This document shows, in pieces, positions 18,557 to 32,133 of a DNA stretch of 32,133 bases. The stretch lies in assembly GCA_902781185.1 (NCBI GenBank), contig CACZII010000004.1, positions 1-32,133 on the forward strand. Reading direction: 5' to 3'. The notes beneath the pieces are model-generated. The model ran no database searches. It saw only the letters and a program-made list of their open reading frames with translations, and had not been told where the DNA came from. The position numbers and the translations under genes are program-made. The stretch is from Fibrobacter succinogenes. Lineage in GTDB: Bacteria > Fibrobacterota > Fibrobacteria > Fibrobacterales > Fibrobacteraceae. Within the stretch, counting starts at the first letter, position 1. Each line of letters begins with the position of its first letter.

Positions 18557-19330
18557 CTACTTGCGCACGACGGTCACAGCGGCACCCAACTGCAGGGTGT
18601 TCACCTCGTCAACGGGGTCCCGCTTGGAGTTCTTATCCACCTGGAACTCGTCGTCTCCGTATTCCTTGTTGGAGCCCACACCGCTCCAGTAAATGGCCGT
18701 ATTCAGGGTTATACCCACAAAATAGTGCTCCGAAACCTTCCAGACGTTTCCCAACTCGAATTTATAGCCCACTTCGTCAGTGGCATATTCCATGTCGTAC
18801 TTATCCCAAGAATTATCCGGGACCAAAAAAGATACCGCCGTTCCCACAAAGAATCCATCCAGAAGCGACACCACGTTCACGAAGGGATAAACCTTGACTC
18901 CAAAGCCATAAAAGGGGCAGAGTTGACCACCACTCTCCTTGAATTTTTCCTTGTCCCGGGAGTAGTACTTGTAATAGGAATCCCCGAAAGACCAGGCCAG
19001 GCCCAAATCAAGAAACAGAATGCCTCGCTGGAACAAAAGCACACCAACCTTCGATTCGAATCGCGGGCCACTACCTTCAAAGGAATAAATGTTGTAATAG
19101 AGGTCTTTATCGTAAACCATTTCATCCCGGTCGGTATCGTGGTACCAATGGGAGATAGATTCCGTCTTGTAATCGGACTTTGAATACTGCCCCCCTACGG
19201 AGATTTCAAAATAGGGGTAGACAAAATCCGATGCACGGTGACGCCGCCTCTTGCAGGGCTGTGTCGGTTCGTCCGTGTCGGCCAGGGTCACGCACACCAG
19301 GCAGGCAATCAAAAAAAGAACTCGAATCAC
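18557..19330 (-). CDS. Exported protein of unknown function
   Basis: No family is recognised. The 257-residue product starts MIRVLFLIACLVCVTLADTD, a clear signal peptide, and the mature part is beta-rich with many aromatic residues (YFEISVGGQYSKSDYKT, GFGVKVYPFVNVVSLLDG, GITLNTAIYWSG) ending LQLGAAVTVVRK. This suggests a small outer-membrane or surface protein. The GTG start overlaps the stop of the upstream gene (GTGA) and GAGG lies upstream, so the two are translated together. Confidence 0.6.
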   Translation of the reverse strand: MIRVLFLIACLVCVTLADTDEPTQPCKRRRHRASDFVYPYFEISVGGQYSKSDYKTESISHWYHDTDRDEMVYDKDLYYNIYSFEGSGPRFESKVGVLLFQRGILFLDLGLAWSFGDSYYKYYSRDKEKFKESGGQLCPFYGFGVKVYPFVNVVSLLDGFFVGTAVSFLVPDNSWDKYDMEYATDEVGYKFELGNVWKVSEHYFVGITLNTAIYWSGVGSNKEYGDDEFQVDKNSKRDPVDEVNTLQLGAAVTVVRK

Positions 19331-19866
19331 GGCAACCTCAACACGGCGTAATTCACGAACTTTCCACAGGAGGTATCGTCAGGAGGCAAGAACGTCTCTA
19401 CTATATATTCCCCGTTGATTTTCCGTTCGTCAAATTCCACAAAGCGGTATTCGATATAGTCTTCGCCCCAGCGGTGCGAACGGCTATCGATAACATAGGT
19501 AGGTAACGGAATTTTCTTGTCGGCACAGTAAAAAGAGATGCCCACCGAAATTTTGTTCGTACGGCCTTGCGTGAACAGGCTGTCGCAATACGAGCCACAG
19601 TAAAGGCATGCCATGTTTCGCTGGTCAAAAAATCCGTATTTTGACACCGTAGAAGTGGAGCCTTCCCAAACGGAGTCCCCCGCCTGGTAGGTAACCCGCA
19701 TTTCTATGGAATCTACACCGGCTGGTTGCTGTGCGCAAACATCAACAGAATATTTTGTGGGTTTCCCAAAATCATCCATCGGGGCACCGCAATCCGCGCA
19801 ACAAAACGCCAGCCACGAAGACACCAGCACACAGTACACCGCAAATTTAGACCTAGGGAATTTCAT
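19327..19866 (-). CDS. Exported cysteine-rich protein of unknown function
   Basis: No family is recognised. From the ATG at 19866 the 179-residue product begins MKFPRSKFAVYCVLVSSWLAF, a signal peptide followed by CCADCGAP. Further cysteines occur in pairs (ACLYCGSYC, and single ones later), which suggests disulphides or a lipidated N-terminus. An upstream GTG at 19923 would place 19 non-signal residues in front and runs into the preceding terminator, so it is rejected. The stop overlaps the start of the 18557-19330 gene; together they form a two-gene exported-protein operon. Confidence 0.6.
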   Translation of the reverse strand: MKFPRSKFAVYCVLVSSWLAFCCADCGAPMDDFGKPTKYSVDVCAQQPAGVDSIEMRVTYQAGDSVWEGSTSTVSKYGFFDQRNMACLYCGSYCDSLFTQGRTNKISVGISFYCADKKIPLPTYVIDSRSHRWGEDYIEYRFVEFDERKINGEYIVETFLPPDDTSCGKFVNYAVLRLP

Positions 19867-19874
19867 TTGATGAA

Positions 19875-19908
19875 AATATAAAAAGACCGCAGCGGTTAGG
19901 CTACGGTC
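19875..19908 (-). terminator. Rho-independent terminator abutting a -10-like element
   Basis: On the minus strand GACCGTAGC (19908-19900) pairs with GCTGCGGTC (19893-19885) around a 6-base loop, followed directly by five T. It follows the stop at 19936 and should end the SLOG operon. The T-run merges into TATATT (19880-19875), which sits 8 bases before the next ATG at 19866, so terminator and downstream promoter elements are fused. Confidence 0.75.
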
Positions 19909-19935
19909 GTCTTGCGTTGCCATTTATTTGCAATG

Positions 19936-20454
19936 CTATTCAAAAGAATTTATCGCTAAAATGGAACGATATAGCTCATTAAAAAAGGAACTCAATTTGT
20001 ACGAAGACTGAATTATAGTACGCTCCTTTTCATTCATATAGAGGTTTCGATTCAATGCCATTGTAAACGAGGGACAACTTATCGTCCCAGCGACATTCTC
20101 TATAAATGACGGATTGGTTCCAACATTAAAAGACGGGCATACCTTTTTCGCAAAGACCTTTTTAACTTGAGATAATACTTCATCATTCGGTCGGCCCTCA
20201 TCCTCATTGTAAGCAATGAAAGCATCATAGGGATTTCCTTCACTATCAAAAGCTTCTGGAATATCGGACGCAAAACTTGTTACGTTGATAAGAAGAGTAT
20301 CCGTCTGCGATGTCAATTCAAGCAACTGGTCCTGGTCTCCGCAAATCATTTTAAAAAGACCGCTAGATGACATCTCAACGCTGGGCTGCAAGACCGCATC
20401 CAAAAAGTGGTTTTCCGCATCGTGATTCGGGATGTTCAGGACCAGTTTTTTCAT
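19936..20454 (-). CDS. Hypothetical protein in SLOG operon
   Basis: No family is recognised. The 172-residue protein has no signal peptide or membrane segment and starts MKKLVLNIPNHDAENHFLDA; it looks cytoplasmic with a mixed alpha/beta composition. AAGGAG precedes the ATG at good spacing, inside the end of the SLOG gene, with only two bases between stop and start. The tight coupling suggests a shared function with the SLOG protein. A terminator follows about 30 bases after the stop. Confidence 0.7.
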   Translation of the reverse strand: MKKLVLNIPNHDAENHFLDAVLQPSVEMSSSGLFKMICGDQDQLLELTSQTDTLLINVTSFASDIPEAFDSEGNPYDAFIAYNEDEGRPNDEVLSQVKKVFAKKVCPSFNVGTNPSFIENVAGTISCPSFTMALNRNLYMNEKERTIIQSSYKLSSFFNELYRSILAINSFE

Positions 20455-20456
20455 AT

Positions 20457-21176
20457 CTATCTCCTTGCGGCTTTCAGCAGTGACTTAATCTGCTTTGCGT
20501 TCATTGCGGGCTTAGGTTTATTCTCTTGTTTGGGCTGCGGATTGAACGCATAAGCTGATGCAGGTACCTTAGGGAAGTCCCCTTTCTTCGGAAATTCAAA
20601 ATCCATATTACCAGATTCAATCCCCGACCCCATAATTAGTTGTTTTAGGCGTAAGAACCAATCTGGGTTTTTCATATTGAAAATGGGAACGCCCTTGCGG
20701 CTCGCCATTTCAATAGCCTGCCCCGTTCCACCCGAATCCCGCGTACGGGTGGTATGACTTTCGCAGCCATCCTTGGTGTAGCAAAGGACAAAATCGACAA
20801 TCTGGTCCAGGTTCCTTCCGAAAATCTGATTGGTGTTGCGGGCAAAAAGATCCAGAGCGTGCCCCTGCAATCTTTCATGTGCAGGATGCAGTTCCTGCGC
20901 AATAGAACGGGTTTCTTCAGAGGCGTCTGTCGAACGGAAGATTGTCTTGTTTTTATTGTCTTTCACGCCAAATTCGAACGCCGCATCGGCACCTTTTGCA
21001 CCGCCGCTGTTTAGGCCATAGCCCATTTTTTCAAGCACACCTGCAACCCACGCCATCACATTCTGGACAGGTTCGCCAGTGTTCGGCTCCGTGAACCCAT
21101 CTAAATCACGGTGGCCAATTCCTGCATAGGTCTTGTTTTTCCCCGGCGCATGGGGCAAGTCTTTAAATTTTCTCAT
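20457..21176 (-). CDS. SLOG-superfamily (DprA/lysine-decarboxylase-like Rossmann) protein
   Basis: The 239-residue protein opens with KNKTYAGIGHRD and then NSGGAKGADAAFEFG, the two glycine-rich loops typical of SLOG-type nucleotide-binding folds. Near residues 145-165 a GGTGQAIEMASRKGVPIFN segment follows, as in phage and element-borne members. The C-terminal 60 residues are proline/lysine-rich and end in a basic helix (AKQIKSLLKAARR). SLOG proteins bind nucleotides or nucleotide-derived ligands and occur in phages and defence or conflict loci. The exact ligand is unknown. An AAGGAG site precedes the ATG, and the gene is coupled to the downstream 172-residue protein. Confidence 0.7.
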   Translation of the reverse strand: MRKFKDLPHAPGKNKTYAGIGHRDLDGFTEPNTGEPVQNVMAWVAGVLEKMGYGLNSGGAKGADAAFEFGVKDNKNKTIFRSTDASEETRSIAQELHPAHERLQGHALDLFARNTNQIFGRNLDQIVDFVLCYTKDGCESHTTRTRDSGGTGQAIEMASRKGVPIFNMKNPDWFLRLKQLIMGSGIESGNMDFEFPKKGDFPKVPASAYAFNPQPKQENKPKPAMNAKQIKSLLKAARR

Positions 21177-21229
21177 TTTTCACTCCTTTTTTACTCTATT
21201 TCATTTTTAAATCTTGTTCAAATTCGTAC

Positions 21230-21736
21230 TTATTTCTCACCATCATGGCTAGCCCTAAGTAGAATCCACTTTCGGAACCACTCCGGTTCATTTTCAATGT
21301 TCTCAGCTAAAGATTTTATCTTTCGCTTTCCTAGGCGGCTATCCAGAAGCGCCAACAGTCGAATAAAGTAGTTCTCATGGGTAAGCGATTGTTCAAAAGA
21401 AAGTTCATTTAGAAATTGATGAACATAAAGCATGACGTCTCCAGAAGGCTCCATTGTGGTAGCAGGGACGAATCCGAATTGATGGATAATTCCATTTCGG
21501 GATTCCTCGCTTACACTCCAAGGTTTTGTCGATTGGTACAGCTCCTTGTAGTATTTGGGATTCGTCGCAAACCAGGTCTCGCCATCGACCAAAATGGAGA
21601 ATACCCTCATTTCGGACGCCCACCACTTTTTATCCTTTTCCTTGTTAGTCCTTAAGACATCGTAGCGAAATTGTACACGGTCTTTTAGCTCTTCACAAAG
21701 CCTTGACTCCAACATTTGTTTAGTCTTGCTCCACAT
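21230..21736 (-). CDS. Hypothetical protein
   Basis: I do not recognise a named family. The 168-residue cytoplasmic protein has a tryptophan-rich centre (KKWWASEMRVFSILVDGETWF) and a C-terminal block with RLLALLDSRLGKRKIKSL. The gene is low in GC like its neighbours and lies on the same strand, 53 bases upstream of the SLOG gene start. The ATG has no strong ribosome-binding site. Confidence 0.6.
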   Translation of the reverse strand: MWSKTKQMLESRLCEELKDRVQFRYDVLRTNKEKDKKWWASEMRVFSILVDGETWFATNPKYYKELYQSTKPWSVSEESRNGIIHQFGFVPATTMEPSGDVMLYVHQFLNELSFEQSLTHENYFIRLLALLDSRLGKRKIKSLAENIENEPEWFRKWILLRASHDGEK

Positions 21737-21819
21737 TTAATCTTATTTTCCTATCAAATGAGTTTCTCTATGCAAAATATGGTGCAGATATTTTTCCCAT
21801 AACGTTATTACCTCGTTAA

Positions 21820-22938
21820 TTATCCTGCAAAAGCCCGGATTTTGCCCTTGGATAGATATTTTGGAACAATTTCTAGAAATTCAGGATATTCTATATCCAA
21901 AAGATCTTTTGAATCTGTAATTAGCCCTTTACGAATCAGGTCTAGGCAACCTGCAAAACGCATCGTGTTCCTTTCCTTGAGCATAAAGCCAAAATGTCTC
22001 TTGCAGCAGTCAAAATGTTCTCTGGTAAGAAGCTTTACCGGATTTTCCAAAATATTTCTAGCTATGCCTATAACTTTATCCACATTCTCTGAGGCAGTGC
22101 TTGTGTAAAACAAGGTGATTCCCACCGTTCGGAAGCTTTCGGTGGTGTAATCGCAGGAATAAACAAGTCCATTCTTGACCCGCAATTCGTTATAAAGTAC
22201 ACTTTCAGAATCCCCGCCAAGCATTTGCGTGGCCATAGTCATGGCGGCAAAATCACGATTTCCGATGATGGGTTCGGCACCTATAAGAACAACGGTCCTT
22301 GCATCGGCGGATTTTTTTACAACTATATCTTTTTCGTCAGGTTCTGAATGAATGATCTCCATAATGGAGTCAAAAATCGGTTTCTCGGAAAAAACAATGT
22401 CAGGGAAATCGACGTTTCTGGGGCCCACGTAAATAATTCGACTTGGATGTGCAGCGTACCGCACAAAATCCTTCTTGAATTCATCAAAAGTATAGGCGGT
22501 CACATCCTCCATTTTGCCGTCCGCATCATCAATTCCGTATGTTTCCTTCAAGGCTCGATAGATTGTCGCTCCGAATGTATCGGATTTCCTATCCCTATTC
22601 TCATTTATTACCGCAGTTCGTTCGCTTTCAAATTCGTCTTCTGTAAATTGATTAACGTCAAAAAAGACTATTTGCCTGACAATAGCCACAGCCATCTTTT
22701 CCATGGCTTCTGCTGTTCCAGAAAAAGAGGCCTTTACATATTCGTGAGAAGTGCTAAAATCATCATGAATCCCATTAAGGTAGAGCTCGTGTTCAATGGG
22801 CTTAATCGCTTGCCCCATCATGTGTTCAAGGAAGTGAAAAATCCCACGGTGTCCCTCTTTTTCGTCAAGGGGGGACATGTTGTCATACACCAGGTGTAGG
22901 CTTGACATTTCCAATGGGCTAATTTCCTGAATAATCAT
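21820..22938 (-). CDS. M16-family zinc metallopeptidase-like protein
   Basis: This 372-residue protein carries the inverted zinc motif HFLEH (His35, Glu38, His39) of pitrilysin-type peptidases. A glutamate about 74 residues later, in the ESERTAVINEN segment (Glu113), fits the usual third-ligand spacing. The second half has the M16 arrangement (FRTVGITLFYTSTASENVDKV). It has no signal peptide, so a cytoplasmic location is likely. Length corresponds to one M16 unit of about 400 residues, which would normally need a partner half or a dimer. The ATG at 22938 follows AAAGG; a GTG three codons earlier is possible. It lies downstream of a radical SAM peptide cluster on the same strand, making peptide processing a plausible role. 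Confidence 0.75.
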   Translation of the reverse strand: MIIQEISPLEMSSLHLVYDNMSPLDEKEGHRGIFHFLEHMMGQAIKPIEHELYLNGIHDDFSTSHEYVKASFSGTAEAMEKMAVAIVRQIVFFDVNQFTEDEFESERTAVINENRDRKSDTFGATIYRALKETYGIDDADGKMEDVTAYTFDEFKKDFVRYAAHPSRIIYVGPRNVDFPDIVFSEKPIFDSIMEIIHSEPDEKDIVVKKSADARTVVLIGAEPIIGNRDFAAMTMATQMLGGDSESVLYNELRVKNGLVYSCDYTTESFRTVGITLFYTSTASENVDKVIGIARNILENPVKLLTREHFDCCKRHFGFMLKERNTMRFAGCLDLIRKGLITDSKDLLDIEYPEFLEIVPKYLSKGKIRAFAG

Positions 22939-22955
22939 GAAAAACACCTTTCACA

Positions 22956-23393
22956 TCATTTCATTATTGCAAAGCATCCTGCACCCGTAAAGGCTACATA
23001 CACCTTGCCGCCATACATCAGCGTATCGCCGAGGGATGAGTAGTAGATTTCCCATACCTCGTTCCCCTCGAAGCGATCGTCGCTACAGTGCGTAAATGGC
23101 GGTTTTGAATAGCGGCATTCCGTATGCGGAGCAGTGGCGTCATAGCACACCTCACCATCGGCATTTTTGTAACAGATCTGGGAGCGGTTGGCGTATTTGA
23201 TGATGTCTACACGAAATTGGTAGTCAACCGTATCTCTTGTAAGGGATTCGCGAGTCAAGCAGTTGAGTCGAGTTATGGCGTTGTAGTCTGCCGAAATACG
23301 CCCTACAATGCTATTTGCCGGGTCTTGTTCAGGAAGGGTTGCGCATGCGGTGATGAGCAGAAGCAACAGGGCGAAACTTATGAAGAGCCTCAT
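22956..23393 (-). CDS. Putative lipoprotein of unknown function
   Basis: From the ATG at 23393 the 145-residue product begins MRLFISFALLLLLITAC, a lipoprotein signal with lipobox LITAC. The mature part has six further cysteines (for example CYKNADGEVC, ECRYSKPPFTHC), suggesting disulphides. A longer in-frame start at 23486 would overlap the upstream gene and hide the signal. GGAAGTGAGG before the ATG lies within the 3' end of the upstream exported-protein gene, with 7 bases between stop and start. Confidence 0.68.
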   Translation of the reverse strand: MRLFISFALLLLLITACATLPEQDPANSIVGRISADYNAITRLNCLTRESLTRDTVDYQFRVDIIKYANRSQICYKNADGEVCYDATAPHTECRYSKPPFTHCSDDRFEGNEVWEIYYSSLGDTLMYGGKVYVAFTGAGCFAIMK

Positions 23394-23400
23394 TGTGGCC

Positions 23401-24057
23401 TCACTTCCAGGTTCTTTCCATTTTTTCGGCCTTTTTCCCCGGCCCATATTGACTTCCCGGTCGAATCCACTGGTCCCAGCCTGCACCTGGTTTGAGCATG
23501 ACCCAGTCGTAGGTATCCCTATAACGAATCTGGTTTTCGTATTTTTTGCCGAACCGGTCTAGGATCTCACGGGAACTGGGCAAAATTTGCCGGATCGGTT
23601 TTCCATCCTGGTAATATTTGGCCTGATTTTCCATTGGCTGGAAATAGTATTCGCCCACTACGACAGGAACCATGTCAATAACCACGGTAAGGATGATATC
23701 AGGGCAGCTTTCCCTGATATTGTCCGTCGAGAAAAAATACTCCCCATTGGGTAATGTGTAATCGTAGGCACACCGCATTCCGACAATCTTGTCGTTTTCA
23801 GTTATGATGGATATTTTTGCCAGGTGCCGGATTACTCCGTAAGGGCAATTGCCCTCCTTGTCGGGGGCGATAGTCACCTGGCCGGCATAGTGACAGATCC
23901 TTTTCCCCTCGAACTCAATCACGGAGGCGTCAAGGCCCCAGGCGGAAGTGGATTGCGGCAGTAATGGCAACGCAGCAAGAAAATTCCATTTACCCGTTGG
24001 CTTGTCGGCAAGAGTCATGGTAGAGAGTACGAGAGCCAGCAAAAGAATTCTTTTCAT
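23401..24057 (-). CDS. Exported protein of unknown function
   Basis: The 218-residue product starts MKRILLLALVLSTMTLADKP, a standard signal peptide. The mature part contains three or four cysteines and aromatic-rich stretches (WFLAALP-type start, DTYDWVMLKPGAGWDQW near the end). No family is recognised. GGAGGAA precedes the ATG at ideal spacing, so expression is likely good. It is followed 7 bases later by the lipoprotein gene, and the pair probably function together in the envelope. Confidence 0.68.
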   Translation of the reverse strand: MKRILLLALVLSTMTLADKPTGKWNFLAALPLLPQSTSAWGLDASVIEFEGKRICHYAGQVTIAPDKEGNCPYGVIRHLAKISIITENDKIVGMRCAYDYTLPNGEYFFSTDNIRESCPDIILTVVIDMVPVVVGEYYFQPMENQAKYYQDGKPIRQILPSSREILDRFGKKYENQIRYRDTYDWVMLKPGAGWDQWIRPGSQYGPGKKAEKMERTWK

Positions 24058-24111
24058 GGGGTTCCTCCGTTCATATATCGCTTTAGACTACGGAATTGTC
24101 AAATTTCATTG

Positions 24112-24144
24112 TCATTGCGAGGGGCGAATGCCCCGAAGCAATCT
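24112..24144. repeat. Single TCATTGCGAGG-type interspersed repeat
   Basis: TCATTGCGAGGGGCGAATGCCCCGAAGCAATCT shares its ends with the tandem units at 16463-16637 but has a different central stem (GGGGC...GCCCC). CATTGCGAG and GAAGCAATC-type ends are partly complementary. It forms the 3' end of the amidohydrolase gene, including its stop codon. Confidence 0.75.
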
Positions 24145-24894
24145 ACTTGCATTCTCCCACGAAATTTTCTTCCAGTCCTTACCGGCGATTTGCTTACTTG
24201 TAGCAATTCGTGCCCGCAAGTACCGCGGGAGAGAGCTTTTCAGGTAACGGCCAGGGATGGGAGTGTCCGTCCCGAACAAAATTCGATCAATAAAGCCCTG
24301 CTCACGAGCAACATGAATGAGATTCCGTAACTGATTATGCGGCATAAAGGAAGTATCTACATAGGCATTAGGATTATTCAACAGGACCTGAATGGCAGGA
24401 GATAACGGACGTCCATGTGCAAGAATTACAGGAACATCGCCATAGATTTTACAAATGCGTCCGAAATTACCCGCATTACACCATTCGTTCTTTTCGCCCG
24501 TATGGACTTTCACAAACAGACCCAAATCCCTCGCAATATCAAAAACACGCCTAAAGCATTTGTCCGAGGCCACAGGCACCCATTTTTCAGACTCCCCATG
24601 AATTTTCAGCCCACAAATCTTTCCACCCTTTTCACTCATATACAAAGACAAGTCTCTAGAAAGTTTCAGCATATCGTGGGTCACCCACAAAATGGGTTTG
24701 GCGCAACCTTCCGAAAGTTCATGCATAGCAACACGCTCTTCTAGCAGAAAAACAGGATCATCTGTGACGACCGTACTCGTGCTGGAATAGGCAAAATGTG
24801 TGGTACCCGCCGACCTTAATGTGCGCAATATTCGTGGCGGCGTGTAATAGTCGTCAAAATATTGCCCTATATGCACATGAAAATCGAAAAGCAT
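24112..24894 (-). CDS. Amidohydrolase-family protein in radical SAM cluster
   Basis: The 260-residue protein has the amidohydrolase (PF04909-like) metal-site order: FHVH (His6, His8), VKVHTGE (His131), ILAHGRP (His160) and FGTDTP (Asp210), on a TIM-barrel-sized chain. Members hydrolyse or decarboxylate diverse small molecules; the substrate here is unknown. Its ATG shares a base with the stop of the radical SAM gene (TAATG), so the two are translationally coupled and probably act on the same peptide. The last nine or so codons and the TGA lie within an interspersed TCATTGCGAGG repeat, so the C-terminus (LLRGIRPSQ) is repeat-derived. Confidence 0.8.
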   Translation of the reverse strand: MLFDFHVHIGQYFDDYYTPPRILRTLRSAGTTHFAYSSTSTVVTDDPVFLLEERVAMHELSEGCAKPILWVTHDMLKLSRDLSLYMSEKGGKICGLKIHGESEKWVPVASDKCFRRVFDIARDLGLFVKVHTGEKNEWCNAGNFGRICKIYGDVPVILAHGRPLSPAIQVLLNNPNAYVDTSFMPHNQLRNLIHVAREQGFIDRILFGTDTPIPGRYLKSSLPRYLRARIATSKQIAGKDWKKISWENASRLLRGIRPSQ

Positions 24895-26342
24895 TACCCC
24901 TTTCTCATTTTCGCCTTAGCCTCTTCAACCAATTTTCTATTCAGGTGTGCGGCCTTGCAGAAGTGCGGTGCCACTTTCAAATAATCTCCACCACTTTCGT
25001 TAAAATTGCGGACAAGGCAAGGAGCACAATACTGTCTATCTTCACAATCATAGCATTGTGGAATTGCTGATTTGGTGAGATTACGTAGTTTGTTCAGTTG
25101 CGGAGACTTTTCCCAAATATCCTTAATGGGCTGTTCTCGCACATTGCCACAAGCCATTCCTTGCCATCCACTACATGGATACACAATACCATCACTTGCA
25201 ATGCAGAGATTATCCATGCCCACACCGCAGAAAGGTTGTTTACCCCATTCTTCCCGTGAAATAGGAGGCACAGGCGTATCAGTAAAGTCAAGATAATCTT
25301 TATCAAATTGGATAATATCCTTGAGTAGTTCCTCCGTTTGTTCCATCGTCAAACGTTCTGCAAGGTTATCCGTCGTAAAGTCATAGCGAGCCATCATCAC
25401 ATAGTCCGTTTGAGCTTTGCAATTACGTTCATAAGCGTATTTCAATACGTCCTTATAGGTGCGATAATTCGTCTTCATCACAGGGCAGCTAATTTGCACA
25501 GGAATGTTTGCGGCAATCAACGCATCGATAGCGGCCTTTGTTTTTTCGCAACTGCCATTGAGTTGCGTAATGTGGTCATGTTCCTCTGGAATAACGCTGT
25601 AAAGCGATGTTTGAACATAACTTGGATTAACTTCCTTGAGAACCTCTATCATATGCGGAGTAATCAAGGTAATGTTCGATAGCACATAAAAGCTGAAATC
25701 AAGCTCACGAGCTTTGCGCAAAATCTTCTCTGCATCAGGATGCGTGAAAAATTCGCCACCCGAAAGTGTTAACCCCATAACACCTAAATCATGCAACTGA
25801 GTTAGAACATTTTCAATCACTTCGTATGGCAACACCACATTTTTCAATTCATGCGGAATGTAACAGTGGATGCATCGTTCGTTACAGCGATTTGTTGTTT
25901 CAATTTGGCAACTATGAATTTGAGGATGCTCACGGTAATACGAACCTAATACCTCCTGAGTATCTGCAAAAAGTTTTTCGTCATTTAAATTCTGCTGTGC
26001 GTTATAGGTGAATAGAGTCTTTGGATTTTCAGCATAGCTGAAGAAGGTGTCTTTAGCAGCACATTCTTCAGCAGTACTTCCAGACACCAAGTAACGGTCA
26101 GCGACAAGGGAATCCAAAAATTCCTGCAAGTCTGTCTGAATATCTGATGGAGTAATCCCTTCAAAATATTCGCACGCCTTTGCAGCTAGAATTTCTAGAC
26201 TCTGGGGCTCGCGAGAAAGAACATCGAGAAACGCCCGACCCTCCTGCGTATAGGTGCGGTCATGTTTGGTGAGCTGACTTTTGATATAACCATACTCACC
26301 AATAGAACGAATAAATGTATCACGAGATTGACGATAAAACAT
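24894..26342 (-). CDS. Radical SAM/SPASM peptide maturase with N-terminal PqqD-like domain
   Basis: The 482-residue protein has three parts. Residues 1-90 look like a PqqD-type RiPP recognition element (EGRAFLDVL, LQEFLDSLVADRYLV). A radical SAM core follows, with the 4Fe-4S motif CNERCIHC (Cys153, 157, 160) and SGGEFF (about 194-199). The C-terminus is a SPASM domain with Cys372, Cys390 (GIVYPC), Cys430/433/439/442 (CYDCEDRQYCAPC) and Cys462, enough for two auxiliary clusters. This is the architecture of sactipeptide, ranthipeptide and related thioether or carbon-carbon bond-forming maturases. I recall an NCBIfam family called FibroRumin system radical SAM peptide maturase that it might match, but this is unchecked. 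AAAGG precedes the ATG. Confidence 0.88.
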   Translation of the reverse strand: MFYRQSRDTFIRSIGEYGYIKSQLTKHDRTYTQEGRAFLDVLSREPQSLEILAAKACEYFEGITPSDIQTDLQEFLDSLVADRYLVSGSTAEECAAKDTFFSYAENPKTLFTYNAQQNLNDEKLFADTQEVLGSYYREHPQIHSCQIETTNRCNERCIHCYIPHELKNVVLPYEVIENVLTQLHDLGVMGLTLSGGEFFTHPDAEKILRKARELDFSFYVLSNITLITPHMIEVLKEVNPSYVQTSLYSVIPEEHDHITQLNGSCEKTKAAIDALIAANIPVQISCPVMKTNYRTYKDVLKYAYERNCKAQTDYVMMARYDFTTDNLAERLTMEQTEELLKDIIQFDKDYLDFTDTPVPPISREEWGKQPFCGVGMDNLCIASDGIVYPCSGWQGMACGNVREQPIKDIWEKSPQLNKLRNLTKSAIPQCYDCEDRQYCAPCLVRNFNESGGDYLKVAPHFCKAAHLNRKLVEEAKAKMRKG

Positions 26343-26399
26343 ATTTACCTTTTGAACAACATCCTTATGATTAAGAAGATTTCCACTTTGACAAACACC

Positions 26400-26660
26400 T
26401 TATTTTTGTGACAAAAGCACAATTGCTCGTTGCATATCTTCTTTTTGCTCCAAACCTCCTACTTCCTCTTGAAGAATAAGTACATTATTGGACTCTGCAC
26501 CTCCTGAAACACCTATATTGTCACAAAATTTTTGAACAGCATTTTCGATTTCTAAAAAACGCAGCAATTCCTCTTTTGATGGTGCATCCGGCAATCCAAA
26601 ACGTTTTGACCTTAATGCAATTGCTTGGCTTCTATAATATTCAAACATTGATTGATTCAT
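26400..26660 (-). CDS. Small protein of the radical SAM cluster
   Basis: The 86-residue product begins MNQSMFEYYRSQAIALRSKRFG and continues with a charged helical stretch (SKEELLRFLEIENAVQKF) and a glycine/acid-rich second half with GVSGGAESN. It has a single cysteine and no signal. AAGGAG lies 9 bases before the ATG and inside the upstream gene, with two bases between stop and start. It could be an accessory protein, a second substrate peptide with a helical leader, or a chaperone for the maturase; nothing in the sequence decides between these. Confidence 0.65.
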   Translation of the reverse strand: MNQSMFEYYRSQAIALRSKRFGLPDAPSKEELLRFLEIENAVQKFCDNIGVSGGAESNNVLILQEEVGGLEQKEDMQRAIVLLSQK

Positions 26661-26662
26661 AA

Positions 26663-27015
26663 TCAAATCTCCTTTGGGTCTTTTTTCCCTATGCAATATT
26701 GTCTTAACGGAATTACAGGTTTATAGGTCGTCTTTTCCAAATCAACTTTAACACTGCTATTGAGCGCTTTGGGATTATGCAACTCATTTACTAAAGCATC
26801 CAACAGCCGGGTCAGATTTTCGTCCGACGATTTATTTCTAAACTTTTTCAAATTGTTGTAGTGATCAACATATTTTTGACAACAGTCCACCGAATCAAGA
26901 ATTTCTGCATAAATGTTTTTTATTTTCGCTTTTTTGCATTCATCCAGTTTTTTTCTATCCCTTTTATATTTTTTTCAATTGTATCAAGCTTTTCTTTTAG
27001 TTCCTTACCAATCAT
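26663..27015 (-). CDS. Small coiled-coil protein split between two frames (frameshifted or recoded)
   Basis: An ATG at 27015 with AAAGGA 8 bases upstream opens a frame (MIGKELKEKLDTIEKNIKG) that stops at 26920 after 31 codons. The -1 frame, open from about 26975 to the TGA at 26663, encodes KKLDECKKAKIKNIYAEILD and then DCCQKYVDHYNNLKKF onward. Two runs of seven A on the coding strand lie in the overlap (plus-strand T runs at 26969-26975 and 26948-26954), reading A AAA AAT and A AAA AAC in the zero frame. A -1 shift at the second gives a continuous heptad pattern and a 117-residue product. A GTG at 26890 could also start a 75-residue version but lacks a binding site. Confidence 0.6.
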
Positions 27016-27052
27016 CGAAAAATCCTTTACTTAAGATCAACAAACACCCCCT

Positions 27053-27078
27053 AAAGCAGGGCTGTTACACCCTGCTTT
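27053..27078 (-). promoter_or_regulatory. Stem-loop after precursor-peptide gene
   Basis: AAAGCAGGG and CCCTGCTTT form a perfect 9-bp stem with an 8-base loop, 20 bases after the stop of the 49-codon peptide gene. It is not followed by a clear T-run, so it is more likely a leaky terminator or mRNA-stabilising hairpin. Such a structure would give more peptide mRNA than maturase mRNA. Confidence 0.7.
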
Positions 27079-27097
27079 GGAGATGGTTGATTGCATT

Positions 27098-27247
27098 TTA
27101 TTCAGCACGATCGCAAGCTTTGCAGCCCCGCACATAACCATCTGGTCCACGACCCTCACTCGGGCAACCAGCAGCAAAGCTACCGGTCGGATTATTCTTC
27201 GCAATCAGACGCGGCTTCTTGTAAGCCATCTTCTTTATTGTCTTCAT
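27098..27247 (-). CDS. Candidate Cys-containing RiPP precursor peptide (49 residues)
   Basis: Reading the minus strand from an ATG at 27247 with AGAGG about 7 bases upstream gives 49 residues: a basic leader-like half starting MKTIKKMAYKKPRLIAKNN, then PTGSFAAGCPSEGRGPDG and YVRGCKACDRAE before TAA. The three cysteines (28, 42, 45) and glycine-rich spacing lie in the C-terminal half. That is the expected layout for a substrate of the downstream radical SAM/SPASM enzyme. It is the first gene of the cluster and is followed by a strong stem-loop, typical of precursor genes. It has no signal peptide. That it is the substrate is an inference from position and composition. Confidence 0.7.
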   Translation of the reverse strand: MKTIKKMAYKKPRLIAKNNPTGSFAAGCPSEGRGPDGYVRGCKACDRAE

Positions 27248-27371
27248 AATATACCTCTAGAGTATGTTATCCCGCATTCTGTTGCGCACCATGTTGCGCG
27301 GGTTTCAATACGGTGCGTTTTGCGTTTGCAAATGTTTTATGGATTGCATCCTTTTGACTGGTTCAAGGGCA

Positions 27372-27989
27372 TCATTCATTGCCTGATCCGGTATTCCCCT
27401 GCTTATCGCCTCTGGGCCAAAAGTTCCATAGCAAGAAAAACAATCCCATAATCACCGACAGTACAATTAATGGGGTGGATTGCGATTCAAAGTGAATGCC
27501 GGTCATGCCAAATGCAATAAACTGTATAATGGAAAGGATAACTAAGATAAACAAGCTCGTAAACAAGCGCACAATCATCATTGAAGAAACTTTCCAAAGT
27601 TTCACAATTAGGATTGTAAGAACGGTCCATCCAATTATACACGCTATATCGATTTGTTGTCTCAAATTTTCCTCAACATCTTTCCAGGACGGGAATTTTT
27701 GATGAAGAAAAATCAGCGTTATCAAAATTAGAGTCAATGCGACAAAACAATACCGTGCAGCGCGTCTCTTGGAAGGAGAAGCGCTGGAATGTATAGATGT
27801 CATAAACGGAAACAAGAAAACGTACAATATGTAATCCATTATACCGTTCTGTTTTTTTGAATCTATTTTCATCCTCCAGGCTTCCATTTTTTGAACAATA
27901 CTTCTCTGGGCGCCTACAACTTTTGTATCGAGTGCGGTAAAGACTTTGCTAATTTTCTTTGCAAAGCTCTCTTTATCCTTATTTTCCAT
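27372..27989 (-). CDS. Hypothetical membrane protein upstream of peptide cluster
   Basis: The 205-residue product from the ATG at 27989 (AGGAG 8 bases upstream) has a charged N-terminal half (MENKDKESFAKKISKVF) and four or five hydrophobic segments (starting near residues 50, 78, 115, 140 and 175). It ends in a polar tail. No transporter motif or peptidase residue is evident. It lies 124 bases upstream of the precursor gene on the same strand, so a role in export, immunity or sensing is possible but unsupported by motif. The frame extends upstream to 28088, but that part lacks a binding site. Confidence 0.6.
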   Translation of the reverse strand: MENKDKESFAKKISKVFTALDTKVVGAQRSIVQKMEAWRMKIDSKKQNGIMDYILYVFLFPFMTSIHSSASPSKRRAARYCFVALTLILITLIFLHQKFPSWKDVEENLRQQIDIACIIGWTVLTILIVKLWKVSSMMIVRLFTSLFILVILSIIQFIAFGMTGIHFESQSTPLIVLSVIMGLFFLLWNFWPRGDKQGNTGSGNE

Positions 27990-28065
27990 ACCAAACTCCT
28001 CATGCGATACTTCTGGAGTTTCGCCCCTGCTCAACAAGGAACTGTGCCAAATTTTGTATGGATGC

Positions 28066-28275
28066 AAAAAAGGCGCAGGTCGCTGCATTTACCTGAACGG
28101 GGCTCTAGACAGCCACTAACCGATAAACGCAAACGACCCACGCCCCAAAAGGGCTGTTGCTTACACAGCAAACCGAGATACACCGCAAAACGGCATACCT
28201 GCGTGAGCGTTTGCCTTGTCCTCGGTTAGGGAAATTGTCTAGATTTCGTTCAGAGGGCAAGAGCAAAAAACTCTC
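28066..28275 (-). ncRNA. Candidate multi-stem structured RNA
   Basis: Paired segments (plus coordinates) are 28104-28111/28236-28243 (8 bp), 28116-28123/28222-28229 (8 bp), 28130-28135/28208-28213 (6 bp) and 28139-28143/28201-28205 (5 bp). They form a long interrupted helix capped by three hairpins at 28143-28153, 28158-28172 and 28177-28199. On the minus strand a TATATT lies upstream (28286-28291 region), and a small CAGGT/ACCTG stem followed within 4 bases by six T lies downstream (28066-28095). That favours minus-strand transcription. It could be an independent small RNA or a structured leader of the 27372-27989 gene. I cannot assign it to a known RNA family. Confidence 0.5.
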
Positions 28276-28392
28276 TATGCTTCAAAAACTAATATAAAAT
28301 TGAGAGAGATGCTCAAAAAATCTACAAAAAAAATATTTTTCGAGGTCAAAACGCCTTTTTTACGCAAATTTCGCCATTTTGGGGTCTAAAAC

Positions 28393-28421
28393 CTCGTAAA
28401 GCGCTCGTAATGGCCTCGTAA
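28393..28421. repeat. Three CTCGTAA direct repeats at 11-bp spacing
   Basis: CTCGTAA occurs at 28393-28399, 28404-28410 and 28415-28421, exactly 11 bp apart, so the copies face the same side of the helix. Inverse-orientation TACGAG copies follow near 28433, 28510 and 28573. The pattern resembles an iteron or a cooperative operator. The surrounding DNA is AT-rich and carries no convincing gene. Confidence 0.6.
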
Positions 28422-28472
28422 AACTGTAAGATCTACGAGATTTCTCAGAAAAATAATCTCATCAAGATAAAC

Positions 28473-28505
28473 CGCTACGAAAAGCAAAAAAGTTGTTTCA
28501 TAGCG
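28473..28505. repeat. Inverted repeat with 10-bp arms
   Basis: CGCTACGAAA (28473-28482) faces TTTCATAGCG (28496-28505), with one non-identical position that still allows a wobble pair in RNA. The 13-base loop is A-rich. No T-run follows on either strand, so a protein-binding site or RNA hairpin is as likely as a terminator. Confidence 0.5.
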
Positions 28506-28639
28506 AATTATACGAGGTCTTTATGGCGATTCTTGGTCGAAAAAAGGAAATTGGTGAACTTCATCTCGCGAATTACGAGACAAAAACTAGCGTTTTTGAT
28601 TAAATTTTGACATTTTTGTAAATGACCAGTTCGACCTTG

Positions 28640-28668
28640 TTGACTTTTTCTACAAAAAAAAGTATATT
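28640..28668 (+). promoter_or_regulatory. Sigma70-type promoter
   Basis: TTGACT (28640-28645), a 17-base spacer and TATATT (28663-28668) match a strong housekeeping promoter. The predicted start near 28675 coincides with the first base of the candidate small RNA stem. It points toward the 3' end of the convergent DUF3800 gene, with no open reading frame downstream on this strand. Confidence 0.65.
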
Positions 28669-28674
28669 TACTAT

Positions 28675-28755
28675 AGAGTCCTTGGTTGGTGAATGTCGGC
28701 TCCACGCCGTGCGTTTCTTTGGAAACCTAGCCGCTGATGGGACTCCATTTTTTTT
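28675..28755 (+). ncRNA. Candidate ~80-nt small RNA ending in a U8 terminator
   Basis: From the predicted start, GAGTCC (28676-28681) pairs with GGACTC (28740-28745), followed within two bases by eight T. Inside this closing stem are GGTT/AGCC pairing and two hairpins, CGGC-tccac-GCCG and GTTTC-tttg-GAAAC. The terminal 29 bases are antisense to the last codons of the DUF3800 gene. The combination of promoter, compact nested fold and terminator supports a transcribed small RNA. No known family is recognised. Confidence 0.55.
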
Positions 28756-29521
28756 GCTCTAACGGATTCTTGTCCGTATAGAATGTCCCATAAAACTGGT
28801 TCGCCTGAACATCGAAAATGTCATGCACCAGTTTTATTTTTTCCCTGATAAAATTGAAATAGCGGAAATCGTTCTTCTCATATACCCTGAACACAGTCCA
28901 CAGCACATAGTCAATCACCTGTAGCAAGGGCAAATGGGACGGCTGTTGCAGGAATATGCGAATTTTACCGTTGTTTTCTTTTCCCCATTTCTGCCGAAAC
29001 TTAACAATGGCGTCGTTCAGGGCTTCCGTCATATTGGAAACGCTCACGATATTGCTCATCTGTGAAAAATAGATGTCTATTTCGTTATAGAGATGCAAAC
29101 GATTTTTCAGGAGTTCCGCGACCAAGAATTTATACAACTTCTTATCGCTCATGTTGAATTTGCGACGAAAAATAGCTTCATCTTTACGAGCTACAATAAC
29201 ATAGGCTTCGAAATCAGCATTCTTCAACAATTTGAAAACCTTCTCTTTTACTTCCGCACAATCCTTGTTCGCATGAAAACCGTTCTTAAGATTTTGCACT
29301 GACGGAACAGCCTTGAGATATTCGTCCTCCATCAATTCTTTGCGAAGCTTTTCCAAATCAACCAGCAACTGATGCGGATTAGACATTTCCACATAGCCTA
29401 CAGAGAAAGTCTTACTAACTAGACCTTCTTGCAGAAGGTTCTTGCCACGATGTCCAAGAATTTTCGGATCTCCCGATTCGTCAAAGTAGTAGAACATTTT
29501 CTGTGGCAAAGTCTCTTTCAT
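28727..29521 (-). CDS. DUF3800 domain protein
   Basis: The 264-residue protein has the DUF3800 hallmark YYFDESGDP near residue 12 and the C-terminal LLQVIDYVLWTVFRVY helix with a conserved aspartate. Between them lie a KNGFHANKD segment and an IDIYFSQM strand. The family is thought to have an RNase H-like fold and is frequent in mobile and defence regions, but its activity is not established. ATG at 29521 follows GGAG at 8 bases; a TTG four codons upstream is less likely. No partner protein is adjacent; structured RNA candidates lie directly downstream. Confidence 0.8.
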   Translation of the reverse strand: MKETLPQKMFYYFDESGDPKILGHRGKNLLQEGLVSKTFSVGYVEMSNPHQLLVDLEKLRKELMEDEYLKAVPSVQNLKNGFHANKDCAEVKEKVFKLLKNADFEAYVIVARKDEAIFRRKFNMSDKKLYKFLVAELLKNRLHLYNEIDIYFSQMSNIVSVSNMTEALNDAIVKFRQKWGKENNGKIRIFLQQPSHLPLLQVIDYVLWTVFRVYEKNDFRYFNFIREKIKLVHDIFDVQANQFYGTFYTDKNPLEQKKWSPISG

Positions 29522-29651
29522 TACAAACTCCAAAATACATCAAATAATTTCACCTTTGCAATATAAATTATTTCAATTAAACAAACAAGCGTTTGAAATT
29601 GCGAGAAATCAATTCTTGTTTTTTCAGGGTGAACGAGGTAAGCCAGGCGTT

Positions 29652-29790
29652 ACGGGCGCGGCGACTGAGCGCCCGTTAGAAGGGGTAGCGGAAGACCCGA
29701 CCGGGGCGGGTTATAACAAAAGATCCCCGACCAAGTCGGGGATGACATTTGGGGTGGGGTCGGGGCTGTAGTTAGGGGAAGGCCTTCCCC
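29652..29790. repeat. Cluster of palindromic repeats in a gene-free stretch
   Basis: The 29522-29853 interval holds no convincing gene. It contains an ACGGGCGC/GCGCCCGT stem (29652-29676), a GATCCCCGA...TCGGGGATGACA unit (29723-29747) and a perfect 16-bp palindrome GGGGAAGGCCTTCCCC (29775-29790). GC content jumps relative to the flanking AT-rich bases before 29625. These look like different families of interspersed repeat accumulated between two genes. Confidence 0.65.
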
Positions 29791-29794
29791 TCTT

Positions 29795-29840
29795 AGATCC
29801 TTCGGCTTCGGCGCGATGCGCCTCCGCTCAGGATGACACA
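29795..29840. repeat. Third copy of the GATCCTTCG...CTCAGGATGACA repeat
   Basis: AGATCCTTCGG...CCGCTCAGGATGACACA has the same ends as the copies flanking the GIY-YIG gene (7007-7051, 7341-7383) but a different centre (CTTCGGCGCGATGCGCCTC). No GIY-YIG gene accompanies this copy. Confidence 0.8.
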
Positions 29841-29853
29841 ATCAAATATTGTG

Positions 29854-29904
29854 TCACTTCACCACAATATTCACGAGCTTGCCCGGAACGACGATGGACT
29901 TCAC
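29854..29904 (-). pseudogene. Duplicate fragment of the LeuS C-terminal tail
   Basis: On the minus strand this stretch encodes [16 protein letters not shown] followed by TGA, identical over 16 residues to the C-terminal end of the LeuS encoded just upstream (there followed by PA and TAA). Most codons differ synonymously between the copies, so it is not a recent duplication. It has no start codon or binding site of its own and is taken as a remnant of another leuS 3' end. Confidence 0.75.
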
Positions 29905-29937
29905 CCCGGAACCCCTGAACTTGATTCAGGGCCGGGG
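29904..29937. repeat. GC-rich hairpin between the two leuS tail copies
   Basis: CCCCGG-aac-CCCTGAA and TTCAGGG-CCGGGG form a 13-bp stem with a 3-base bulge and a 5-base loop. It begins exactly at the 5' edge of the duplicated tail and ends 11 bases after the live leuS stop. It may act as the leuS terminator although no T-run follows. Confidence 0.7.
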
Positions 29938-29948
29938 CAGGCTCATTT

Positions 29949-32133
<2,185 letters not shown>

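What the first reader, a model, noticed from the sequence alone, without database searches (positions are those of the whole stretch)
24112..27247. RiPP-like cluster: Cys-containing peptide, split small gene, RRE/radical SAM/SPASM maturase and coupled amidohydrolase
Seen: a 49-codon gene with cysteines 28, 42 and 45 and a good ribosome-binding site, a 9-bp stem-loop after it, two small genes, a PqqD-like/radical SAM/SPASM protein with complete cluster motifs, and an amidohydrolase joined by a TAATG overlap, all on one strand. Known: this maturase architecture installs thioether or carbon-carbon links in ribosomal peptides. Inferred: the 49-mer is the substrate and the amidohydrolase acts on it or its product. 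Radical SAM peptide families may already be named for Fibrobacter and Ruminococcus, but the amidohydrolase and small partners look unusual.
Basis: partly seen in the sequence, partly recalled or inferred. Interest (0 to 1): 0.85.

Follow-up and report, generated by a model that had tools for sequence, protein, structure and literature searches.

The report
Fibrobacter modified-peptide cluster with swapped cores
This stretch of a rumen Fibrobacter genome encodes a small peptide, its dedicated iron-sulfur modifying enzyme and a hydrolase; relatives show one constant guide end and a constantly changing business end, and a two-gene version rides on E. coli-group plasmids and a phage, pointing to an unnamed family of enzyme-tailored peptides probably used in microbial conflict.

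Summary
The 49-codon gene is a RiPP precursor. Eighteen homologues, all Fibrobacteraceae, share YxKPxxxAKNxPxGSFxAGCP followed by a variable stretch and a fixed CxxC[E/D]xxx-stop. Leader codon changes are mostly synonymous. The precursor accompanies an RRE(PqqD)-radical SAM-SPASM maturase and, with one exception each way in 80 Fibrobacter genomes, an amidohydrolase.

The maturase passes no NCBIfam cut-off and is not FibroRumin. The leader carries YxxP, the motif lasso-peptide RREs bind. C42xxxD/E46 is the spacing the ranthipeptide maturase PapB cross-links; chemistry is untested.

(1) The core plus all DNA up to the maturase is exchanged as a block, so the "two small partners" are locus-specific, not conserved machinery.
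(2) Loci with a second radical SAM have cores ending C[LM]NCERT.
(3) A two-gene relative (38-mer plus maturase, 37% identical) sits on E. coli, Salmonella and Photobacterium conjugative plasmids (17 synonymous, 0 nonsynonymous codon changes in the 38-mer) and, as AT-rich cargo, in a Mu-like phage contig.
(4) A covarying 5'-UTR pseudoknot, absent from Rfam, precedes this gene and other Fibrobacter small genes.

Verdict: real, unnamed variant of a known kind; function unproven.

The parts
27098..27247 (-). RiPP precursor, 49 aa: leader MKTIKKMAYKKPRLIAKNNPTGSFAAG (YxxP motif Y9-P12), variable core, C28, C42, C45, D46
   Evidence: 18 homologues, invariant leader and CxxC[ED] tail, leader codon changes mostly synonymous
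24894..26342 (-). Maturase, 482 aa: N-terminal RRE (PqqD-like, ~1-90), radical SAM core (147-302), SPASM (372-462)
   Evidence: Pfam hits; cluster cysteines invariant in 18 homologues incl. plasmid ones; nearest solved relatives SkfB, PqqE, radical SAM 5v1q
24112..24894 (-). Amidohydrolase (Amidohydro_2), 260 aa, start overlaps maturase stop (TAATG)
   Evidence: Pfam 1.4e-11; H6, H8, H99, H131, H160, D210 invariant in 13 homologues; co-occurs with precursor, Fisher p 1.4e-11, uncorrected for relatedness
26920..27015 (-). 31-codon ORF, first half of the frameshifted interval gene
   Evidence: frames read; one-base shift in GAAAAAAAC
26663..26890 (-). 75-codon open frame, second half of the frameshifted interval gene (no RBS of its own)
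   Evidence: no homologue in the other loci
26400..26660 (-). 86-aa interval gene; distant relatives in the interval of L061 and beside unrelated genes in L088 and L102
   Evidence: alignment A10, 27-34% identity; no Pfam family
27053..27078 (-). Stem-loop between precursor and downstream genes (9 bp), likely partial terminator or processing site
   Evidence: hairpins at the same place in most other loci and on the plasmids
27285..27317 (-). 5'-UTR hairpin P1 (27306-27317 with 27285-27296, 11 of 12 bp)
   Evidence: covariation in 21 distinct sequences; beats 60 of 60 shuffles in this locus
27271..27302 (-). 5'-UTR pseudoknot helix P2: P1 loop 27297-27302 pairs with 27271-27276, just before the RBS
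   Evidence: compensatory changes CCCGCG/TGCGGG, CTCGC/GCGAG, CCCTC/GAGGG
23401..24057 (-). Accessory gene: secreted-type protein, 218 aa, unknown family
   Evidence: homologue beside the amidohydrolase in L076 and near non-RiPP pseudoknot loci; not in most RiPP loci
21820..22947 (-). M16-family peptidase with HFLEH motif, same strand; possible but unproven leader protease
   Evidence: Pfam M16 3.7e-14; not found in the other RiPP loci

Best explanation
It is a leader-guided RiPP pathway. The 49-mer is made in excess of its enzymes, and its translation is probably tuned by a 5'-UTR pseudoknot. Its YxxP leader docks on the RRE at the maturase's N-terminus. The radical SAM/SPASM domain then cross-links Cys side chains in the core, most plausibly C42 to D/E46 (CX3[D/E]) and C28 to a residue of the variable loop, giving a constrained, exchangeable loop. 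The dedicated amidohydrolase then hydrolyses the modified peptide, probably trimming or releasing it. The hypervariable core, swapped together with neighbouring genes, suggests a product under diversifying selection, such as a bacteriocin or a conflict/defence peptide. Shown by sequence: precursor-maturase-amidohydrolase linkage, leader constraint, block exchange. Inferred: docking, cross-link type, hydrolysis step, function.
For: Precursor upstream of the maturase where the contig allows; 18/18 YxKP and CxxC[ED]xxx-stop. PqqD/RRE in 16/18 maturases; YxxP is the lasso RRE recognition motif (PMC12710340). PapB joins Cys to Asp/Glu in CX3D/CX3E (PMC9413430). Amidohydrolase co-occurrence p=1.4e-11 and intact metal ligands; the Thiodictyon plasmid has PqqD-rSAM, rSAM, amidohydrolase, YcaO and TfuA genes in a row. 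Precedent for a RiPP amidohydrolase: PurAH/BotAH (PMC10885120). Distant plasmid relatives keep the YxKP precursor directly before the maturase, with 17 synonymous and 0 nonsynonymous changes. Core and interval swapped as one block. Second rSAM present only with C[LM]NCERT cores, 4 v 13 loci.
Against: No modification is shown experimentally. The full-length structure model is poor (pLDDT 45), and the RRE model (pLDDT 71) has no significant PDB match. Plasmid and phage relatives and some g17 loci lack the amidohydrolase. No exporter or conserved protease was seen next to these genes, unusual for a secreted bacteriocin.
Confidence: 0.7

Rival explanations
1. Intracellular anti-phage or element-exclusion peptide rather than a secreted bacteriocin: the modified peptide stays in the cell, and the variable core tracks phage or plasmid targets.
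For: No exporter seen; two-gene version is cargo of conjugative plasmids and of a Mu-like phage between the late activator and endolysin genes; interval of L069 is a PDC-S15/FRG candidate defence gene; a DUF3800 gene is beside the window locus.
Against: Association with defence genes may only reflect shared accessory islands; the plasmid/phage core is nearly constant, unlike the Fibrobacter core.
Confidence: 0.3
2. Classic bacteriocin with immunity: the swapped interval genes next to each core are the cognate immunity genes, as in colicin-type polymorphic loci.
For: Same core goes with same interval genes (L031/L062 94% DNA identity across the interval v 87% in the maturase; L076/L033 76%), different core with different genes.
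Against: Interval absent in g17 loci and on plasmids; no homology to immunity families except a sub-threshold Imm47 hit, E=0.098; the 86-aa gene has relatives away from any precursor; the window's first interval gene is frameshifted.
Confidence: 0.25
3. The maturase makes a non-thioether bond (C-C, C-N or epimerisation), and the three Cys bind a metal or form a disulfide.
For: Nearest solved relatives include PqqE and SuiB-type enzymes that make C-C bonds (SuiB assignment of 5v1q from own knowledge); no thioether family cut-off is passed.
Against: Cys and the following acid are the only invariant core residues; SkfB, a sactipeptide enzyme, is the best solved match.
Confidence: 0.25
4. The 49-mer is not the substrate, or the island is decayed: the maturase acts on another molecule.
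For: Broken neighbour gene here; frameshifted precursor in L033; orphan precursor in L067.
Against: Leader under strong purifying selection and linked to the maturase in all but the orphan locus; identical logic in distant plasmids.
Confidence: 0.07

Closest known systems
Ranthipeptides made by PapB-type maturases
   Same: Radical SAM/SPASM maturase; invariant CX3[D/E] spacing in the core; leader-guided substrate
   Different: Maturase does not pass NF047865 (44 bits for L071 against a cut-off of 340); one CX3[D/E] motif plus an upstream GCP instead of many; hypervariable loop; amidohydrolase partner
Sactipeptide systems (SkfB, AlbA)
   Same: PqqD/RRE plus radical SAM plus SPASM enzyme with adjacent Cys-containing precursor; SkfB is the closest solved structure
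   Different: AlbA 77 bits v cut-off 850, SkfB 61 v 300; no ABC exporter next to it; core has CxxC[ED] rather than spaced Cys facing hydrophobic acceptors
FibroRumin system (TIGR04136)
   Same: Radical SAM peptide maturase named for this genus
   Different: No match of the model anywhere in this genome
Lasso-peptide leader recognition (YxxP and RRE)
   Same: Tyr-x-x-Pro leader motif with an RRE
   Different: No lasso cyclase or B2 protease among the genes scanned around the locus; RRE fused to a radical SAM enzyme
Bottromycin amidohydrolase PurAH/BotAH
   Same: Amidohydrolase-superfamily enzyme dedicated to a RiPP pathway
   Different: No close sequence relation tested; here paired with a radical SAM enzyme, not YcaO (except in the Thiodictyon relative)

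Membership tests
RRE-dependent radical SAM/SPASM RiPP (general class) | Small precursor gene beside the maturase, conserved across homologues | tested here: met
   18 precursor homologues; adjacent to the maturase except the orphan L067 and contig-edge cases
RRE-dependent radical SAM/SPASM RiPP (general class) | RRE (PqqD-like) domain in the pathway | tested here: met
   PqqD in 16/18 maturases, best 6.5e-6; the fold-level test was not significant
RRE-dependent radical SAM/SPASM RiPP (general class) | Intact radical SAM CxxxCxxC and SPASM cysteines | tested here: met
   C153, C157, C160 and C372, C380, C390, C430, C433, C439, C442, C462 invariant
RRE-dependent radical SAM/SPASM RiPP (general class) | Maturase-dependent modification of the core | not testable with these tools
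   needs mass spectrometry
Ranthipeptide, PapB family (NF047865) | Maturase above the curated cut-off | tested here: not met
   44 of 340 bits for L071; not among the best 25 for the window protein
Ranthipeptide, PapB family (NF047865) | CX3[D/E] in the core | tested here: met
   18/18 precursors
Ranthipeptide, PapB family (NF047865) | Cys to non-alpha-carbon thioether | not testable with these tools
   needs MS/MS or NMR
Sactipeptide (AlbA/SkfB) | Maturase above family cut-off | tested here: not met
   AlbA 77/850, SkfB 61/300 bits
FibroRumin (TIGR04136) | Maturase matches the model | tested here: not met
   no match in the genome
Lasso peptide | YxxP leader motif | tested here: met
   18/18
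Lasso peptide | Lasso cyclase and B2 protease in the cluster | tested here: not met
   no such Pfam or NCBIfam hits among the proteins scanned around the locus
Amidohydrolase superfamily | Metal-ligand set HxH...H...H...D | tested here: met
   H6, H8, H131, H160, D210 invariant in 13 sequences

The most novel reading that the evidence does not exclude
A polymorphic RiPP: one invariant leader and maturase serve a pool of exchangeable core-plus-partner-gene cassettes, in the way toxin-immunity modules are exchanged. A minimal two-gene form has been picked up as fitness or exclusion cargo by conjugative plasmids and a Mu-like phage. In Fibrobacter, expression is controlled by a new pseudoknot RNA element.
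Probability: 0.3. Interest if true: 0.82.

Novelty: new variant of a known kind. Interest (0 to 1): 0.62.

Why it matters
If right, natural recombination has already built a library: one maturase tolerating widely different loops between fixed Cys anchors, which is what peptide engineers want. It also gives a cultured-host entry point (Fibrobacter intestinalis ATCC 43854 carries the maturase and amidohydrolase) and a two-gene relative from E. coli plasmids that can be tested directly in laboratory E. coli, making the question of what exporter-less radical SAM peptides do experimentally accessible.

Tried and rejected
FibroRumin identity: rejected. NCBIfam and Pfam names for the precursor: none up to E=10 or 1. 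Literature search for the motif SFAAGCP or FibroRumin: no papers in the open-access library. Rfam hit in the 5' region: none. Interval genes as conserved partners: rejected. 5' element as RiPP-specific: rejected, it also precedes FRG, lipoprotein and other small genes. Type-A element as a multi-copy repeat in this genome: only one copy. AlphaFold of the full maturase: too poor to use. Fold search with the RRE model: best matches not significant, although the lasso RRE TbiB1 (5v1v, E=2.1) and PqqD (5sxy, E=8) appear. E. coli RefSeq complete genomes: no copy of the plasmid cassette, so it is rare. First 5'-UTR alignment (A3) used wrong L061 coordinates and was replaced by A4.
Full report
1. Observation. 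The precursor has AGAGG seven bases before ATG. The maturase stop and the amidohydrolase start overlap as TAATG. The 'split small gene' is best read as one ~117-aa gene broken by a one-base shift in a run of seven A's. I cannot tell sequencing error from a real mutation in a draft assembly.

2. The family. The maturase has orthologues (63-93%) in the Fibrobacteraceae. A precursor profile (A1) finds 20 of 168 Fibrobacterota genomes, all in four genera of one family; two of those matches are weak and interrupted by stops. Eighteen usable sequences share YxKPxxxAKNxPxGSFxAGCP, then 8-14 variable residues, then CxxC[E/D] and exactly three more residues. From Y to GCP, codon differences between all pairs are 1344 synonymous to 330 nonsynonymous, against 24% synonymous expected for random single-base changes (pairs are not independent).

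3. Block exchange. DNA identity was compared in five segments across 12 loci. Leader 75-95% and maturase 70-90%, but the core and the whole interval from precursor stop to maturase start do not align meaningfully, except for two pairs. L031 and L062 have nearly the same core (AYNAG.../TYNAG...) and 94% identical intervals, more similar than their maturase genes (87%) or upstream DNA (80%). L076 and L033 share interval genes, and the L033 tail, read in a shifted frame, encodes the same CLNCERT end. So core and interval move together. The interval genes have no Pfam family apart from an FRG-domain gene in L069 that matches the candidate defence model PDC-S15. They are missing in genus g17 and on plasmids. 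Immunity is therefore possible but not established.

4. Enzymes. The N-terminus matches PqqD in 16 of 18 members, and the leader has YxxP, listed as the lasso RRE recognition motif in PMC12710340. Radical SAM and SPASM cysteines are invariant down to the 37%-identical plasmid enzymes. Closest solved structures by sequence are SkfB, PqqE and 5v1q. No NCBIfam model reaches its cut-off. The amidohydrolase keeps its metal ligands. In 80 Fibrobacter genomes it occurs in 11 of the 12 with an intact-type precursor and in 1 of 68 without, that one with an internal stop (p=1.4e-11, uncorrected for relatedness). In three loci it is a divergent form (27-33%). Four loci carry a second SPASM-type radical SAM enzyme. 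Those four have cores ending C[LM]NCERT (one read in a shifted frame), and none of 13 loci without it do, which suggests the second enzyme reads that tail.

5. Relatives on mobile elements. On E. coli, Salmonella and Photobacterium conjugative plasmids the 36.6%-identical maturase is directly preceded by an unannotated 38-mer, MSYSKPTVLAKSSTYMAQCRPNSKPSGRPCNPPGPSGR. Between E. coli and Photobacterium the maturases are 77% identical, while the 38-mers differ by 17 synonymous and no nonsynonymous codons, which shows the short ORF is a constrained peptide. An IMG/VR contig holds a 41%-identical maturase and MIYKRPEILAQGTVKMAECKPNSKPSGRPCNPPRPTGR. The maturase stretch is 32-38% G+C, in a contig otherwise mostly 64-72% G+C with Mu-type late activator and endolysin families and a terminase-like ORF (terminase by reading only). 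In Thiodictyon an amidohydrolase gene follows a PqqD-radical SAM gene and a second radical SAM gene, with YcaO and TfuA.

6. Regulation. All seven loci of one 5'-UTR type fold as a hairpin whose loop pairs with a stretch just before the ribosome-binding site. The model R1 finds the element in 20 of 80 Fibrobacter genomes, also upstream of unrelated small genes. Over 21 distinct sequences, 12 of 18 pairs show changes on both sides, and none of 500 shuffles reaches the observed covariation. Loci of other genera have unrelated sequences with the same arrangement, e.g. loop TTTCTATTC and GAATAGAAA in L070 and L073; some loci (L031, L035, L064, L066) do not beat shuffles on their own. Rfam has no match. 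Hairpins follow the precursor stop in most loci and in the plasmid relatives, consistent with more precursor than enzyme being made.

7. Mechanism. Shown: linkage, constraint, exchange. Inferred: RRE docking, Cys cross-linking, amidohydrolase processing, conflict role. The CX3[D/E] spacing is that of PapB substrates (PMC9413430), and PurAH is the precedent for an amidohydrolase in RiPP maturation (PMC10885120). Membership in ranthipeptides, sactipeptides or FibroRumin was tested by profile and not met, so I describe it as working like a thioether-type radical SAM RiPP without filing it in a named family.

8. Limits. Most loci are metagenome-assembled. Phyla outside Fibrobacterota were sampled only through plasmid, phage and viral collections, and only the open-access literature was searched.

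Noticed in passing
window 27245-27350 (-); L087-L091, L097-L106: A covarying hairpin/H-type pseudoknot 5'-UTR element, not in Rfam, in 20 of 80 Fibrobacter genomes, upstream of RiPP precursors and of unrelated small genes (FRG protein, lipoproteins, 46-65-aa ORFs), sometimes in tandem (L088, L097). Candidate new regulatory RNA.
   Followed up: partly
L077, L078, L079, L080: Unannotated 38-aa RiPP-like precursor plus radical SAM gene on conjugative plasmids of E. coli, Salmonella and Photobacterium, downstream of serine recombinase-type genes.
   Followed up: yes
L117 4594-6464: The same two-gene cassette as AT-rich cargo in a GC-rich Mu-like phage contig (IMGVR_UViG_3300014060_000029) between late activator and endolysin genes.
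   Followed up: partly
L082 5689-11766: Thiodictyon plasmid operon with PqqD-radical SAM, radical SAM, amidohydrolase, YcaO and TfuA genes: a possible hybrid thioamide/radical SAM RiPP pathway.
   Followed up: no
L072, L073, L070 (genome G107): One genome of genus g17 has three precursor-maturase copies with different cores; two of the contigs begin ~80 bp upstream of the precursor, suggesting repeated upstream DNA.
   Followed up: partly
L033 3603-3722: Precursor with an internal deletion and frameshift beside intact maturase, second radical SAM and amidohydrolase genes.
   Followed up: partly
L065, L066, L068: Repeated palindromes of the ACAGATGTCTGT type upstream of the precursor, possibly a transcription-factor operator.
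   Followed up: no
window 19000-30000: Low-G+C stretch (0.37-0.50 v 0.50-0.60 outside), consistent with a genomic island; holds a DUF3800_VII gene (28727-29533) of a candidate defence family and an M16 peptidase.
   Followed up: partly
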